A DNA stretch of 64,000 nt, from assembly GCF_014205635.1 (NCBI RefSeq), contig NZ_JACIIV010000018.1:1-64000 (forward strand), written 5' to 3'. A program made the translations under genes and the position numbers. Shown one piece after another: positions 1 to 4,268 of the stretch. Under the pieces are notes generated by a model. That model worked only from the letters and a program-made list of their open reading frames with translations. It made no database searches and had not been told where the DNA came from. The stretch's first letter is position 1. The number at the start of each line of letters is the position of its first letter. Source of the DNA: Polymorphobacter multimanifer (lineage in GTDB: Bacteria > Pseudomonadota > Alphaproteobacteria > Sphingomonadales > Sphingomonadaceae).

Positions 1-39
1 CTCAGGCTTCGTAAGCTGCTCAAGTTCCTCGCGATTCAT
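1..39 (-). CDS. N-terminus of a divergent gene, partial
   Basis: An ATG on the minus strand opens a frame that runs off the left edge after 13 residues (MNREELEQLTKPE). It is transcribed away from the PYP gene and shares a 39-bp gap with it. The start resembles the first residues of some IS66-type transposases (MNREEL-like), but thirteen residues cannot establish that, and no clear Shine-Dalgarno sequence precedes it. It could be any gene or a chance frame. Confidence 0.25.
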   Translation of the reverse strand, partial: MNREELEQLTKPE

Positions 40-78
40 GGATAGTGTGAATCATAGACGCGACCCCTTGGCAAGGGG

Positions 79-411
79 GTGGGTAATTACATCGATGCCT
101 TGCCCTATGGTGTCATCGGCCTTGGCCCGGATGGGACAGCCCAAACCTACAACGCCACCGAGTCTGCGTTGGCAGGATTGCCGAAGTCGAGAGTGTTGGG
201 CGTTCATTTTTTCGACCACATCGCCCAGTGCATGAACAATTTCATGGTCGCGCAACGCTTCGAGGACGAGCCCGAACTCGATGCTACGATCGACTTCGTG
301 CTGACGCTGCGCATGCGTCCGACGCCGGTGAAGTTGCGGCTGCTGCAGTCGCTTCCCATCACGCGGCACTATATCCTGGTGGAGCGGACTGTGTCGGCCG
401 GCCGTGCTTGA
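79..411 (+). CDS. Photoactive yellow protein (PYP) homologue, PAS-fold blue-light sensor
   Basis: The 110-residue product aligns along its whole length with the PAS core of Halorhodospira PYP. The cysteine that binds the p-coumaric acid chromophore (PYP Cys69) is present as Cys51 in IAQC, the hydrogen-bonding Tyr42 and Glu46 appear as Tyr24 and Glu28 in TYNATE, and Met100 as Met79 in LRMRPTPVKL. PYP Thr50 and Arg52 are replaced by Ala32 and Leu34, which would be expected to shift colour or photocycle. The roughly 25-residue N-terminal cap of classical PYP is missing: a TAG at 55-57 limits the frame, and GTG at 79 is the only plausible start. The stop overlaps the start of the diguanylate cyclase, so the two are probably co-translated partners. 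No chromophore-synthesis genes (tyrosine ammonia lyase, coumarate ligase) lie in the window. The family assignment rests on residue alignment from memory. Confidence 0.8.
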   Translation: MGNYIDALPYGVIGLGPDGTAQTYNATESALAGLPKSRVLGVHFFDHIAQCMNNFMVAQRFEDEPELDATIDFVLTLRMRPTPVKLRLLQSLPITRHYILVERTVSAGRA

Positions 412-1759
412 CCAATGCGAATCTGAACTCGGGGATGCACTGGAATTTCTGTACGCCTGTCCGGTCGGGCTGGTGAGAACGTCGTCGAATGGCGACATTC
501 TGATGGTAAACCCGATGGCGATGAAGCTGTTGCTGCCGATTGCAGCAGGCGGCATCGTGACCAATCTGTTCGATGTGCTCTTCCGCTACTCGAACGAACT
601 GCGCACCATTGTAGATCGTTTCACGCCCTCACAGGGCAATATGTGCGAGAACCATCGGATCTTTGTCCACGCTGCCGGCAAGAACGGCGTTGTCGATCCG
701 CTCGTGCTGGCCTGCACGCTGGTCAAGCTCAATGATTGCCGAATGGTTGCGGCACTCTCCGATGTGTCGCAGCAAGTTGTTCAGGAGCGGCGTCTCAGGC
801 AGGCCGAAACCTGGTTCGCGACACTGCTCGATAATGTGAATGACTTTGCAGTGATATCGCTCGACCGCCATGGCAATATCGATGGGGTCAACGCCGCTGC
901 CGCGGTGCTGACCGGGTTCAGCCAAAACGCAATGATCGGCCAGTCGCTGGACGATTTTGATCCGCCCGAGCGTGGATCGGCGTCGTACACTGCGCTGGAG
1001 CAAATGGCGATCGCACAGCGTGATGGTTGGCATCTCGACGAGGGTTGGCGCCAACGCGATGACGGCCAGCGCTATTGGTGCCAGCGGCTGGTCGCTGCGC
1101 GCAGCGAAGACGTGGTTGCCAGTACGCGCGTGATTTCGGGATACACGGTTGTTCTTCGCGACGTCACCCGCGGCGAGTCGGACAGCACCAAGCTGAAGGA
1201 ACTCTTGACCACCGATCATCTCACAGGCGCCTGCAATCGCGCGCATTTCTTCGATCTTGCCGAGCGACAGCGCCTGCGCCTCAGCCTCCAGGGCCAACCG
1301 CTGGCATTCGTCCTTATCGACATCGACCATTTCAAGGATATCAACGACCAGTACGGCCACGCTGGCGGCGATCTCGCCTTGCAGTCGGTGACGAACCTTT
1401 GCCGTACGTTGCTTCGCACGAACGATATCTTCGCGCGAATTGGCGGCGAGGAGTTCGTCGTCCTGTTGCCTGCAATCGATCTCGAGGCCGCAATAGCGAC
1501 CGCCGAGCGATTGAGAATTGCCATCGCCGCCATGCCGCTGCATCTGGCCGACGACGTTGTTCATATCACCGCCAGTTTCGGCTGCGCCGTGCTGAGCAAC
1601 AGCGCTGAAACACTGGGCGGTGTGCTTGAAGTCGCCGACCAGTGCCTTTACGCCGCCAAGCATGGCGGCCGAAATCGCGTTGAGCCCGCCAGCATATTTG
1701 TGGAATGTCCTGCACTCGAGGACAGCAATGGTGTCCAAATTCCGTTGGCAAAACTGTAA
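404..1759 (+). CDS. PAS-PAS-GGDEF diguanylate cyclase
   Basis: The 451-residue product has an N-terminal PAS-like segment (about 10-125), a second PAS domain (about 130-255, ending in the VLRDVT motif) and a GGDEF domain (about 262-430). The active-site motif is intact as GGEEF (347-351), with DIDHFKDIND metal and substrate elements upstream, so synthesis of c-di-GMP from two GTP is expected. An inhibitory I-site RxxD (Arg338-Asp341) lies five residues before the GGEEF, as in product-inhibited enzymes. There is no transmembrane segment, so it should be cytoplasmic. The GTG start overlaps the last 8 bp of the PYP gene, and this is the basis for inferring light control of this cyclase. The role of the first PAS domain (PYP docking or another ligand) is not visible. 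Confidence 0.9.
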   Translation: MLDQCESELGDALEFLYACPVGLVRTSSNGDILMVNPMAMKLLLPIAAGGIVTNLFDVLFRYSNELRTIVDRFTPSQGNMCENHRIFVHAAGKNGVVDPLVLACTLVKLNDCRMVAALSDVSQQVVQERRLRQAETWFATLLDNVNDFAVISLDRHGNIDGVNAAAAVLTGFSQNAMIGQSLDDFDPPERGSASYTALEQMAIAQRDGWHLDEGWRQRDDGQRYWCQRLVAARSEDVVASTRVISGYTVVLRDVTRGESDSTKLKELLTTDHLTGACNRAHFFDLAERQRLRLSLQGQPLAFVLIDIDHFKDINDQYGHAGGDLALQSVTNLCRTLLRTNDIFARIGGEEFVVLLPAIDLEAAIATAERLRIAIAAMPLHLADDVVHITASFGCAVLSNSAETLGGVLEVADQCLYAAKHGGRNRVEPASIFVECPALEDSNGVQIPLAKL

Positions 1760-2007: not shown

Positions 2008-2083
2008 GGGGCAGTAGCTCAGATGGGAGAGCGCAGCAATCGCACTGCTGAGGTCAGGGGTTCGATCCCCCTCTGCTCCACCA
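2008..2083 (+). tRNA. tRNA-Ala (anticodon CGC), phage attachment target
   Basis: A full cloverleaf can be drawn: acceptor GGGGCAG pairs with CTGCTCC, D stem GCTC/GAGC, anticodon stem CAGCA/TGCTG with loop ATCGCAC (anticodon CGC at 2041-2043), T stem AGGGG/CCCCT around TTCGATC, discriminator A and encoded CCA. The last 49 bases are duplicated at the far end of the prophage, so this copy is the one that remains functional in the lysogen. Confidence 0.95.
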
Positions 2084-2110: not shown

Positions 2111-3556
2111 TCATTGGCCGGCTGCGGCGGGGCGTGGGGGCAAATGGATGATTTTGGGACCGAACTGGGACCGACGGTGAGAATTTGTCAGGGCGTCAAT
2201 GTTGCTCCAGTAGGTTTCAACGGCTTCGATAAACTCACGGAGGTATTCGGGGCGGAGGTGAGTGTAGTTGGCGCCGCTGCCCTGCTCGGTGCTGTGGCCG
2301 CTGGCCTTGTCGATCTGGGCTTGCGGGACGCCCATGGTCTGCATGTAGGTATGGCAGGTGTGCCGGAAGGTGTTGGGCGTGCCGATGGCGCGCCACTGGG
2401 GTTCGGGATCCGGGATGCGTCCGTTCTGGCGCTTGGTAAAGACGCGGTGCAGCTGGTTGCCATCGGCATCGAGGAGAGGCTCGACCAGGCGGAGCGACGG
2501 GTGGGCCTTGGCGGCGGAGATGATGGTGGAGCTGAGCGCGTTACCGATATCGAACGTGGGGCGCTCGAAGAACTCGGCGACGGTTTCGACCTTCCAGCGC
2601 TTTTCGGCGATCGGCACGCGGTATTTGATCAGCTTGCCCTTTCGGCCTTCCAGCCAGGCATTGAGGCTGGGCGCGATGGGGACGGTGCTGCGGCGCTTGC
2701 GGGTCTGGCGATCCCCGGGAACGAGCCACTGGATGCGCTTGCCGTGGCGTTGGGTATCGAGATCGCATTCGAGAATGGCATTCGTGCGGGCGTGGGTGCT
2801 CAGGCTGGTGATGGCGAACAGATGGACGTGGTGGCGCTCGGGCATCGACCATGCCGCCTCGAGGATGGCGGCCACCTGCTCCGGGGACCATTCGAGCTGG
2901 CGGGGGCCGCTGCACTGTGATTCCGGCACGCCCTTGATGTAGGGCGCGCTGGTAATGAGCCCGCCCTTCCATGCCCAGTTGATACCGCCGCGGATGGTGG
3001 CGAGTTTGCGATTGATCGTCTCTCCGACGTTGCCCTGCTGGCGCAGCCAGTGGATGAACCTGTCAACAACCTTGGGCGTGATATCGGCGACGGTGACCAG
3101 CGCCGGCAGCGCGCCGGCGCGGCGCTGCTCGGCCATGAACAGTTCGAAATGCTGGACGGCGATCGCGTCTTTTTCCGGATAGCGCAGGCCGGCGCAATGC
3201 TCCGAAAGGTAGCTTGTCAGGATGGCAGAGAGACCAGCTTCGGCCGGGGCCTGTGCGGCTTCGGGTCGGGCGAAGGCGGCGTAATGTGCCGCGAGCGCCT
3301 GCTTTGCCTCGATCGGAGGGTCAACGCCCTCGCCTGCTCCAACGCCTGTGCTGACGCGGCGTCTTGTACCTGCTCGCGGGTCGTACCAGGCCACGACATA
3401 TTGCTGCCGGTCTGGGCGCCATTCGAGGAAATAGGGATCGATCCGGTGGCGGCGGGCGGCGGCAGCGCGGGCGCTGTCTGTGACTGGGGTGGTAACGTGG
3501 TTTCGGGGGGGAACAAGGGCAAGTGTGGGCTGTCCGGGGTGGTGTTTGCGAGGCAT
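2111..3556 (-). CDS. int: Phage tyrosine integrase
   Basis: The 481-residue site-specific recombinase would integrate and excise the prophage at tRNA-Ala. The C-terminal catalytic domain shows the first active-site Arg in STHARTNAIL, the FRHTCH motif (Arg-x-x-His), a later GHS histidine and the tyrosine nucleophile in ANYTHL. The N-terminal part has an Arg-rich stretch followed by a SAM-like core-binding region (about 110-190). It is the last gene of the leftward operon and ends 22 bp inside the attL core. The ATG at 3556 has a GAGGAG about 11 bp upstream. Its first 113 codons overlap another minus-strand frame (3217-3717), so the true N-terminus could be shorter. Confidence 0.93.
   Translation of the reverse strand: MPRKHHPGQPTLALVPPRNHVTTPVTDSARAAAARRHRIDPYFLEWRPDRQQYVVAWYDPRAGTRRRVSTGVGAGEGVDPPIEAKQALAAHYAAFARPEAAQAPAEAGLSAILTSYLSEHCAGLRYPEKDAIAVQHFELFMAEQRRAGALPALVTVADITPKVVDRFIHWLRQQGNVGETINRKLATIRGGINWAWKGGLITSAPYIKGVPESQCSGPRQLEWSPEQVAAILEAAWSMPERHHVHLFAITSLSTHARTNAILECDLDTQRHGKRIQWLVPGDRQTRKRRSTVPIAPSLNAWLEGRKGKLIKYRVPIAEKRWKVETVAEFFERPTFDIGNALSSTIISAAKAHPSLRLVEPLLDADGNQLHRVFTKRQNGRIPDPEPQWRAIGTPNTFRHTCHTYMQTMGVPQAQIDKASGHSTEQGSGANYTHLRPEYLREFIEAVETYWSNIDALTNSHRRSQFGPKIIHLPPRPAAAGQ
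2154..2174. repeat. Candidate integrase arm-type site, left
   Basis: Two TGGGACCGA units separated by AC occur here, inside the last codons of the integrase gene and 66 bp from the attL core. The same 21-bp block is found at 39732-39752, 94 bp from the attR core. A paired short tandem motif just inside both phage ends is what arm-type binding sites of lambda-class integrases look like; binding is inferred. Confidence 0.55.
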
Positions 3557-3717: not shown

Positions 3718-3812
3718 GCTTCGCCCTGAATTTGGAAAAATTTATAGGGGGCACCGAAGGCGGCGCGGGAAAAGGCGAAGCCGAATTTTCGCGCCGCTTG
3801 GGGAACGCTCAA

Positions 3813-4268
3813 TCAGCCATAGCCATAGCCAGAGCCATCGCCATAGCCATAGCCAGAGCCATCGCCAGAGCCAGAGCCATAGCCATCGCGAGAGCCATCG
3901 CCAGAGCCATAGCCAGAGCCATCGCCAGAGCCAGAGCCATAGCCATCGCGAGAGCCATCGCCAGAGCCATAGCCAGAGCCATCGCCAGAGCCATCGCGAG
4001 AGCCAGAGCCATAGCCATCGCCATAGCCAGAGCCATCGCGAGAGCCATCGCCAGAGCCATAGCCAGAGCCAGAGCCATCGCCAGAGCCATCGCGAGAGCC
4101 ATAGCCAGAGCCATCGCCAGAGCCATAGCCAGAGCCCTCGCCATAGCCATAGCCATCGCCAGAGCCATCGCGAGAGCCAGAGCCATAGCCAGAGCCATCG
4201 CGAGAGCCATAGCCAGAGCCATAGCCATCGCCAGACATGGCCGTGCCCGTGGTTACATATTCGGCCAT
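3813..4268 (-). CDS. Gly-(Ser/Asp/Tyr) dipeptide-repeat protein
   Basis: A 151-residue frame starts MAEYVTTGTAMSGDGYG and continues as alternating glycine with Ser, Asp or Tyr, with occasional Arg-Asp, to its stop. Its ATG overlaps the end of the upstream DUF6948-like gene by 16 bp. From memory, proteins of that family can end in similar Gly-Xaa tails, so this may be a C-terminal extension split off by a frameshift, or a separately initiated product. No enzyme or fold can be inferred; such tails are usually disordered. Repeat length is likely unstable by slippage. Confidence 0.45.
   Translation of the reverse strand: MAEYVTTGTAMSGDGYGSGYGSRDGSGYGSGSRDGSGDGYGYGEGSGYGSGDGSGYGSRDGSGDGSGSGYGSGDGSRDGSGYGDGYGSGSRDGSGDGSGYGSGDGSRDGYGSGSGDGSGYGSGDGSRDGYGSGSGDGSGYGYGDGSGYGYG
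3815..4235. repeat. Hexanucleotide tandem repeat, about 70 copies
   Basis: A 6-bp unit of form GC(C/G)A(T/G)(A/C) runs without interruption for 421 bp, mostly GCCATA, GCCATC, GCCAGA and GCGAGA. A higher-order 60-bp period is visible: 3853-3900 is repeated almost exactly as 3913-3960. Because the unit is two codons long, several frames on both strands are open; only the minus-strand Gly-Ser/Asp/Tyr frame has gene context. Confidence 0.97.

What the first reader, a model, noticed from the sequence alone, without database searches (positions are those of the whole stretch)
79..1759. PYP homologue overlapping a PAS-PAS-GGDEF cyclase: a candidate blue-light c-di-GMP switch
The first protein keeps the PYP chromophore cysteine (Cys51), Tyr24 and Glu28 and the Met100 equivalent, but lacks the N-terminal cap and has Ala and Leu for Thr50 and Arg52. 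It shares 8 bp with a cyclase whose GGEEF and I-site are intact. Known PYP output fusions use phytochrome-kinase or phytochrome-GGDEF modules. A short stand-alone PYP translationally coupled to a separate soluble cyclase would be a simpler arrangement. The changed residues predict altered absorption or recovery.
Basis: partly seen in the sequence, partly recalled or inferred. Interest (0 to 1): 0.8.

Follow-up and report, generated by a model that had tools for sequence, protein, structure and literature searches.

The report
Blue-light sensor gene split by transposon
A bacterial blue-light sensor gene that normally sits beside an enzyme making the messenger c-di-GMP has here been cut in two by a jumping DNA element, so the apparently short sensor is a broken copy of a known arrangement, not a new kind of switch.

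Summary
Window 91-411 is the core of a photoactive yellow protein (PYP) with Tyr42, Glu46, Cys69 and Met100 equivalents, overlapping by 8 bp a GGDEF cyclase with GGEEF and I-site. The missing N-terminal cap is not a natural feature. Bases 1-90, including the first four 'PYP' codons, are the end of an insertion sequence found identically at 11 contig ends of the genome. The cap-coding piece lies at the end of contig C30, bounded by the opposite end of the element and the same target duplication, ATCGATGCC. So pyp is split between cap and core. All 81 relatives examined keep an open frame for the cap; 80 of 81 have a cyclase homologue within 71 bp. PYP plus separate cyclase is already published, and Ala50/Leu52 are family consensus. 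No aromatic ammonia-lyase and no close match to the dedicated p-coumarate ligase were found in this genome, and only a 41-residue EAL tail stands before pyp. Most likely a recently inactivated member of a known light/c-di-GMP module with an orphaned cyclase. The ligase-less PYP branch is the open lead.

The parts
1..90 (.). End ('left' end) of a multi-copy insertion sequence; an ATG frame opens on the minus strand at 39 and runs off the contig (start of a transposase by its look, read by eye and recalled)
   Evidence: Bases 1-90 recur identically at 11 contig ends of the own genome and the sequences diverge directly after base 90
74..90 (.). Terminal inverted repeat of the insertion sequence (17 shared bases; 16 of them, 75-90, were used as the search string)
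   Evidence: The same bases end 11 opposite ('right') ends, which have a different inner sequence
79..90 (+).
   Evidence: Inside the repeated 90 bases
91..99 (.). Target-site duplication ATCGATGCC (8 bp plus one chance base, judged by the other copies)
   Evidence: Same 9 bases directly before the right end of the element on contig C30 of the own genome; 9 of 11 left ends pair in this way
91..411 (+). Core (3' part) of the pyp gene; Tyr42 equivalent at 148-150, Glu46 at 160-162, Cys69 at 229-231
404..1759 (+). Diguanylate cyclase gene (451 aa), GTG start overlapping the pyp stop by 8 bp
   Evidence: PF00990 E 8.8e-41, PAS E 2.7e-10; 67% identical to the congener's cyclase
1415..1456 (+). I-site RTND (1415-1426) and GGEEF (1442-1456)
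   Evidence: Read from the sequence; the GGEEF columns are invariant in an alignment of 49 cyclases, the window's and 48 chosen from 80 relatives

Best explanation
The finding is the 3' part of a photoactive yellow protein gene, of a group that stands directly before a PAS/GGDEF diguanylate cyclase, which has recently been split by an insertion sequence between its N-terminal cap and its chromophore-binding core. In intact relatives the likely working is: PYP charged with p-coumarate absorbs blue light, changes shape, and tunes the neighbouring cyclase; where a stand-alone EAL enzyme lies in the same cluster it removes c-di-GMP. In the window's genome this chain is most likely dead: the photoreceptor gene is interrupted, the EAL gene before it is a fragment, no close match to the dedicated coumarate ligase and no ammonia-lyase were found, and the cyclase is left without its sensor. 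Shown: both ends of the split, the target duplication, the conserved neighbourhood, the missing matches. Inferred: the join through the unassembled element, loss of function of the PYP remnant, and that PYP acts on the cyclase at all.
For: Window 1-90 is identical at 11 contig ends and the flanks diverge right after base 90. The window's left end (C18) and the right end on C30 share ATCGATGCC; 9 of 11 left ends pair with a right end through at least 8 identical bases, 11 right ends compared (8 pairs; the ninth, C10 with L092, seen in the output). C30, minus strand, carries ATG and 19 residues with Phe at -16, then the duplication and the element; Phe stands at -16 or -17 in 78 of 81 relatives. 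81 of 81 relatives have an open frame of 15 or more codons above the core, 80 of 81 with a start codon at -40 to -14. The congener G002 has the unsplit arrangement EAL - PYP - cyclase. Tyr42, Glu46 and Cys69 are kept in 82 of 82, and dN and dS against G002 are 0.19 and 1.03 for the PYP core, 0.24 and 1.28 for the cyclase, so the gene was under constraint until recently. Own genome: no PF00221 match, while 5 of 14 control genomes ring; best TIGR02372 match 51.5 bits against 229-345 bits in 39 of the 50 genomes. C30 has a 41-residue match to the tail of the congener's EAL (score 90; best of 200 shuffles 51) and no EAL hit at 1e-6 in its first 12 kb.
Against: The interior of the element is not assembled, so the join C30 - element - C18 is inferred from both ends and the duplication. 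2 of 11 left ends found no partner. The remnant has a frame open from a GTG inside the element, with AAGGGG directly before it, so a cap-less protein could be made; N-terminally truncated PYPs are reported to keep a similar photocycle (PMC4214557, two passages seen). A ligase matching PRK12582 (568.5 bits, under its cut-off of 777; that this is the feruloyl-CoA synthase type is recalled) or another of the 16 scanned ligases might charge PYP. No expression data.
Confidence: 0.9

Rival explanations
1. A working cap-less PYP coupled to the cyclase: the element's end supplies the start codon, giving a truncated photoreceptor with a long-lived signalling state that still controls the cyclase.
For: Frame open from GTG at 79 through the core; chromophore residues intact; truncated PYPs are said to have a similar photocycle with a much longer-lived signalling state (PMC4214557 passage); a 100-residue PYP chain, 1odv, matches from its first residue at query residue 8.
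Against: The AAGGGG stretch touches the GTG, too close for usual initiation (by eye); no promoter-like site on the + strand in 1-2200 in a simple consensus scan; perfect target duplication points to a recent event; no close match to the dedicated ligase and no PF00221 lyase; the same passage says truncated PYPs have a less stable ground state.
Confidence: 0.06
2. The split is an assembly artefact or a minority variant: the strain carries an intact pyp.
For: The element is not assembled through, and both halves lie at contig ends.
Against: The contigs run 90 (C18) and 93 (C30) bases into opposite ends of one element with a matching duplication, a pattern shared by 9 of 11 left ends; only one PYP core is found in the genome.
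Confidence: 0.04
3. PYPs of this branch no longer use p-coumarate, or get it only from outside or through a general ligase, and act as a conditional or non-light sensor for the cyclase (about the branch, compatible with the split here).
For: G000, G002 and L003 form one branch (95/92) and none of the 3 genomes has a TIGR02372 match near the strong range; G000 and G002 also lack PF00221.
Against: Tyr42, Glu46, Cys69 are invariant in 82 of 82; a general CoA ligase could charge PYP; L003 comes from a metagenome bin, whose genome has two PF00221 matches.
Confidence: 0.25

Closest known systems
Clade C photoactive yellow proteins next to GGDEF proteins (PMC9664959)
   Same: Core with Cys69/Tyr42/Glu46 and Met100, neighbouring cyclase; the paper says clade C PYPs were often found adjacent to GGDEF proteins
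   Different: Here the gene is split by an insertion sequence and the cap is on another contig; membership in clade C was not tested on the paper's tree
pyp operons with GGDEF/EAL and pCL genes (PMC12826048, Table 2: GGDEF in 29, EAL in 22, pCL in 42 of 113 operons)
   Same: PYP followed by a separate GGDEF gene; many relatives also carry pCL and EAL nearby
   Different: Window genome has no close pCL match and only an EAL tail
Idiomarina loihiensis PYP (2009 work, seen only as cited in PMC12826048 and PMC9664959)
   Same: Stand-alone PYP thought to act on an adjacent GGDEF protein; blue light lowers biofilm formation
   Different: Intact gene, placed in clade A
Ppd of Thermochromatium tepidum (PYP-phytochrome-GGDEF/EAL), as described in the same two papers
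   Same: PYP linked to c-di-GMP output
   Different: One fused protein with a phytochrome; separate genes here

Membership tests
Photoactive yellow protein | Cys69 for thioester-bound chromophore | tested here: met
   Cys51 in the remnant; 82 of 82
Photoactive yellow protein | Tyr42 and Glu46 | tested here: met
   Tyr24, Glu28; 82 of 82
Photoactive yellow protein | TIGR02373 above its curated cut-off | tested here: not met
   59 bits against 143; PMC9664959 (part 2 of 7 read) says this model covers about 20% of PYP homologues, so it is a poor membership test
Photoactive yellow protein | Unbroken frame of about 125 residues with N-terminal cap | tested here: not met
   Split by an insertion sequence; cap on contig C30
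Photoactive yellow protein | Binds p-coumarate and has a photocycle | not testable with these tools
   No experiment
Diguanylate cyclase | GGDEF domain with GG[DE]EF | tested here: met
   PF00990 E 8.8e-41; GGEEF
Diguanylate cyclase | RxxD inhibitory site | tested here: met
   RTND five residues before GGEEF
pyp-GGDEF operon | PYP gene directly followed by a GGDEF gene | tested here: met
   8-bp overlap here; a cyclase homologue within 71 bp in 80 of 81 relatives (five of the 80 frames are short, 143-276 aa)
pyp-GGDEF operon | Dedicated coumarate ligase in the genome (frequent, not universal) | tested here: not met
   Best 51.5 bits in the own genome; 55 of 82 genomes have 150 bits or more
pyp-GGDEF operon | PYP controls the cyclase by light | not testable with these tools
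   No experiment; structure prediction not available
IS66-like insertion sequence (traits recalled) | DDE_Tnp_IS66 transposase, 8-bp target duplication, ends beginning GTAA | tested here: inconclusive
   8-bp duplications and GTAA ends seen; the element's interior is not assembled, and 5 of 6 fetched loci with an IS66 transposase (L110-L114 of L110-L115) hold no copy of this end

The most novel reading that the evidence does not exclude
An insertion sequence has turned a light-sensing PYP into a natural cap-less version, started inside the element and still coupled to its cyclase, in a lineage without its own dedicated chromophore supply, so that the switch works only when p-coumarate comes from outside and stays on long after light.
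Probability: 0.04. Interest if true: 0.6.

Novelty: new member of a known kind. Interest (0 to 1): 0.2.

Why it matters
It removes a false lead: the short PYP is a transposon-split gene. It also shows this light/c-di-GMP module to be patchy: 6 of 397 genomes drawn from the family have a PYP match, own genome and congener included. The intact congener (G002: EAL, PYP, cyclase, no close coumarate-ligase match, no ammonia-lyase) is the better subject for asking whether PYP controls a separate cyclase and where its chromophore comes from.

Tried and rejected
Natural short PYP group: rejected, because 81 of 81 relatives keep the cap frame and a cap piece is on C30. Ordinary PAS domain: rejected, since Pfam PAS models match weakly (E 0.005-0.009, below cut-off) while the PYP model and PYP structures match far better. 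Spectral shift from Ala50/Leu52: not good evidence, consensus residues; the same paper notes a trend of Ala50 to red shift with exceptions. Gln at position 68 as a mark of lost function: rejected, 47 of 82 have it. Frameshifted cap in bases 1-78: looked for by eye in three frames, nothing like the cap.

Limits of counts. The 80 relatives come from a scan seeded with the window's own peptides (160 stretches, 125 relatives, best 80 kept), so 80 of 81 is a count among near kin, not across all PYPs. Some loci are cut by contig ends, so a gene not seen in a locus may exist. In one search three of the seven ligase queries were cut from a wrong frame or strand (L121, L122, L127 by their look); one of the 48 loci counted with a ligase (L015) rests on such a query, and its ligase is known instead. 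Labels for the tree put two genomes with 108 and 111 bits (L071, L068) under 'no pCL' while four Paraburkholderia at 121-132 bits were 'weak'; the report regroups these six as weak. One search used a limit of E 1e-3 and of 1e-30. Of the 18 PF00501 matches in the own genome, 16 proteins were scanned; two matches in one 1846-aa frame were left out. PF00221 was searched in 50 genomes, not in the 32 further loci. One more genome match of the end (33 rows in all) covers 15 bases (C53) and was not followed.

Full report
What is in the sequence. The frame 79-411 encodes a 110-residue protein and overlaps by 8 bp (404-411) a 451-aa frame, 404-1759. The first matches the PYP model TIGR02373 (E 4.5e-16, 59 bits, cut-off 143) and solved PYPs (best E 4e-13, 1mzu); general PAS models match below their cut-offs. 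Tyr42, Glu46, Cys69 and Met100 are kept. The second has a GGDEF domain (E 8.8e-41) and one PAS region by Pfam, GGEEF at 1442-1456 and an RTND I-site at 1415-1426.

Why the cap is missing. The window starts at base 1 of contig C18 of its genome. A search of the own genome with bases 1-90 gave 33 rows: 11 places with 100% identity over all 90 bases, all at contig ends, and 11 more contig ends that share only the last 17 bases; the other 11 rows are shorter or weaker. Directly after base 90 the 11 flanks differ completely. Bases 1-90 are thus one end of a multi-copy insertion sequence and the shared bases its terminal repeat. Comparing what lies outside the 11 left and 11 right ends, 9 left ends find a right end with the same 8 or 9 bases next to it, a target duplication (8; the ninth, C10 with L092, CCGCAACC, read from the output). 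Two left ends found no partner. The window's end pairs with the right end on contig C30 through ATCGATGCC.

The other half of the gene. On the minus strand of C30 the bases before the duplication read ATG and, with it, 19 residues (MHDFSNIPIATLDAMDESA), then the duplicated ATCGATGCC, then the element. This is the cap: Phe at -16 as in 52 of 81 relatives (-17 in 26 more), and the core in the window starts at the matching place (IDALPYG). So pyp is split between cap and core.

Relatives. A scan of genome contigs found 125 relatives, of which the best 80 were kept; a congener, G002, adds one (2 of 24 genomes of the genus, own included, have a match). In all 81 the frame is open for at least 15 codons above the core, and in 80 there is a start codon at -40 to -14; the exception, L003, has one at -47. 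In 80 of 81 a homologue of the window's cyclase begins within 71 bp of the pyp stop (L053 is the exception, and five frames are short, 143-276 aa). Tyr42, Glu46 and Cys69 are invariant in 82 of 82 including the window; Ala50 in 60, Leu52 in 73. A pCL-like ligase lies within 48 of the 81 loci (39 downstream of pyp, 9 upstream), and a close homologue of the congener's EAL gene (E below 1e-60) in 32 of 81 (8 upstream, 24 downstream); 30 have both. In many Sphingomonas loci the order is pyp - cyclase - pCL - EAL, in Methylobacterium loci EAL - pyp - cyclase - pCL.

Chromophore genes. No PF00221 lyase in the own genome, while 5 of 14 control genomes have one; of 50 genomes searched together 13 have one, G000 and G002 do not. 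The TIGR02372 ligase reaches 229-345 bits in 39 of 50 genomes, 121-132 bits in 4, and is weaker in 7, among them G000 (51.5 bits) and G002 (44.2 bits). With the remaining 32 loci, 55 of 82 genomes have 150 bits or more, 6 have 108-132 bits, and 21 have neither; some of the 21 are metagenome bins. Of 16 ligases of the own genome scanned against NCBIfam (18 PF00501 matches), none had a coumarate-ligase model among its listed matches; one search listed only matches to 1e-100 and to 1e-80, and the three proteins without a listed match there were looked at again to 1e-10 (best 25 of 82-99 families shown). One protein matches PRK12582 at 568.5 bits (cut-off 777), which I recall as the feruloyl-CoA synthase type, and one the benzoate-CoA ligase family at 341.4 bits (cut-off 375). 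So a general ligase cannot be excluded. The tree places the window's PYP with G002 and L003 (95/92), none of the three with a strong TIGR02372 match (few columns, 27 of 78 inner branches open).

Decay of the module. In G002 a stand-alone EAL gene stands just before pyp. On C30 only a 41-residue match to the tail of that EAL is left before pyp (score 90, best of 200 shuffles 51). dN/dS between G000 and G002 is about 0.18-0.19 for both PYP core and cyclase, so both were under constraint until recently; the perfect target duplication also speaks for a recent insertion.

How it works. In intact relatives the best explanation is a light-tuned c-di-GMP switch: PYP as sensor, the adjoining cyclase as output, EAL, where present, as counterpart. 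That PYP touches the cyclase is inferred from gene order only. In this genome the chain is most likely broken and the cyclase an orphan. A cap-less protein could still be made from the GTG inside the element; PMC4214557 (two passages seen) reports that truncated PYPs have a similar photocycle, a less stable ground state and a longer-lived signalling state. I hold this unlikely.

What is known. PMC9664959 (parts 2 and 3 of 7 and passages read): clade C PYPs, mostly Proteobacteria and especially Burkholderiales, are often adjacent to GGDEF proteins, and clade C is uncharacterised. PMC12826048 (abstract and outline, sections 4, 5, 8 and passages read): 113 pyp operons, 29 with GGDEF, 22 with EAL, 42 with pCL, 7 with TAL; consensus residues Ser47, Leu49, Ala50, Leu52, Thr97; uptake of p-coumarate from outside is considered. 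I found no paper on an insertion in a pyp gene: one search, 'photoactive yellow protein' with 'insertion sequence', listed 4 papers, none about this by title and start of abstract; 'photoactive yellow protein' with 'Sphingomonas' listed 3, none about a pyp in that genus by title and start of abstract. Supplementary data of the two PYP papers, which may list these genomes, were not seen.

Verdict. A transposon-split member of a known pyp-cyclase module. New member of a known kind, interest 0.2.

Noticed in passing
window 2008-2083 and 2111-3556 (-): A tRNA-Ala gene is directly followed by a 481-aa frame on the minus strand that looks like a phage-type integrase (by eye, recalled motifs), suggesting an integrated element downstream of the cyclase.
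   Followed up: partly
window about 3809-4230: Long stretch of short repeats (ccatagcc / agagccatcgc units) beyond the integrase frame; open in several frames on both strands.
   Followed up: no
own genome, C59, C48, C44, C35, C15, C9, C1: A second repeated stretch, 76% alike over 41-42 bases to the element's end, occurs 7 times, several of them close to contig ends, so the genome may carry more than one expanded insertion sequence.
   Followed up: no
G000, G002 and the genomes of L003, L011, L018, L019, L027: PYP genes with Tyr42, Glu46 and Cys69 in genomes without a strong TIGR02372 coumarate-ligase match; a possible group depending on outside or general-ligase chromophore supply.
   Followed up: partly
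genome of L066 (G473), C13:75517-76845: The coumarate ligase is matched in two pieces in different frames (75517-76173 and 76171-76845), perhaps a frameshifted copy.
   Followed up: no
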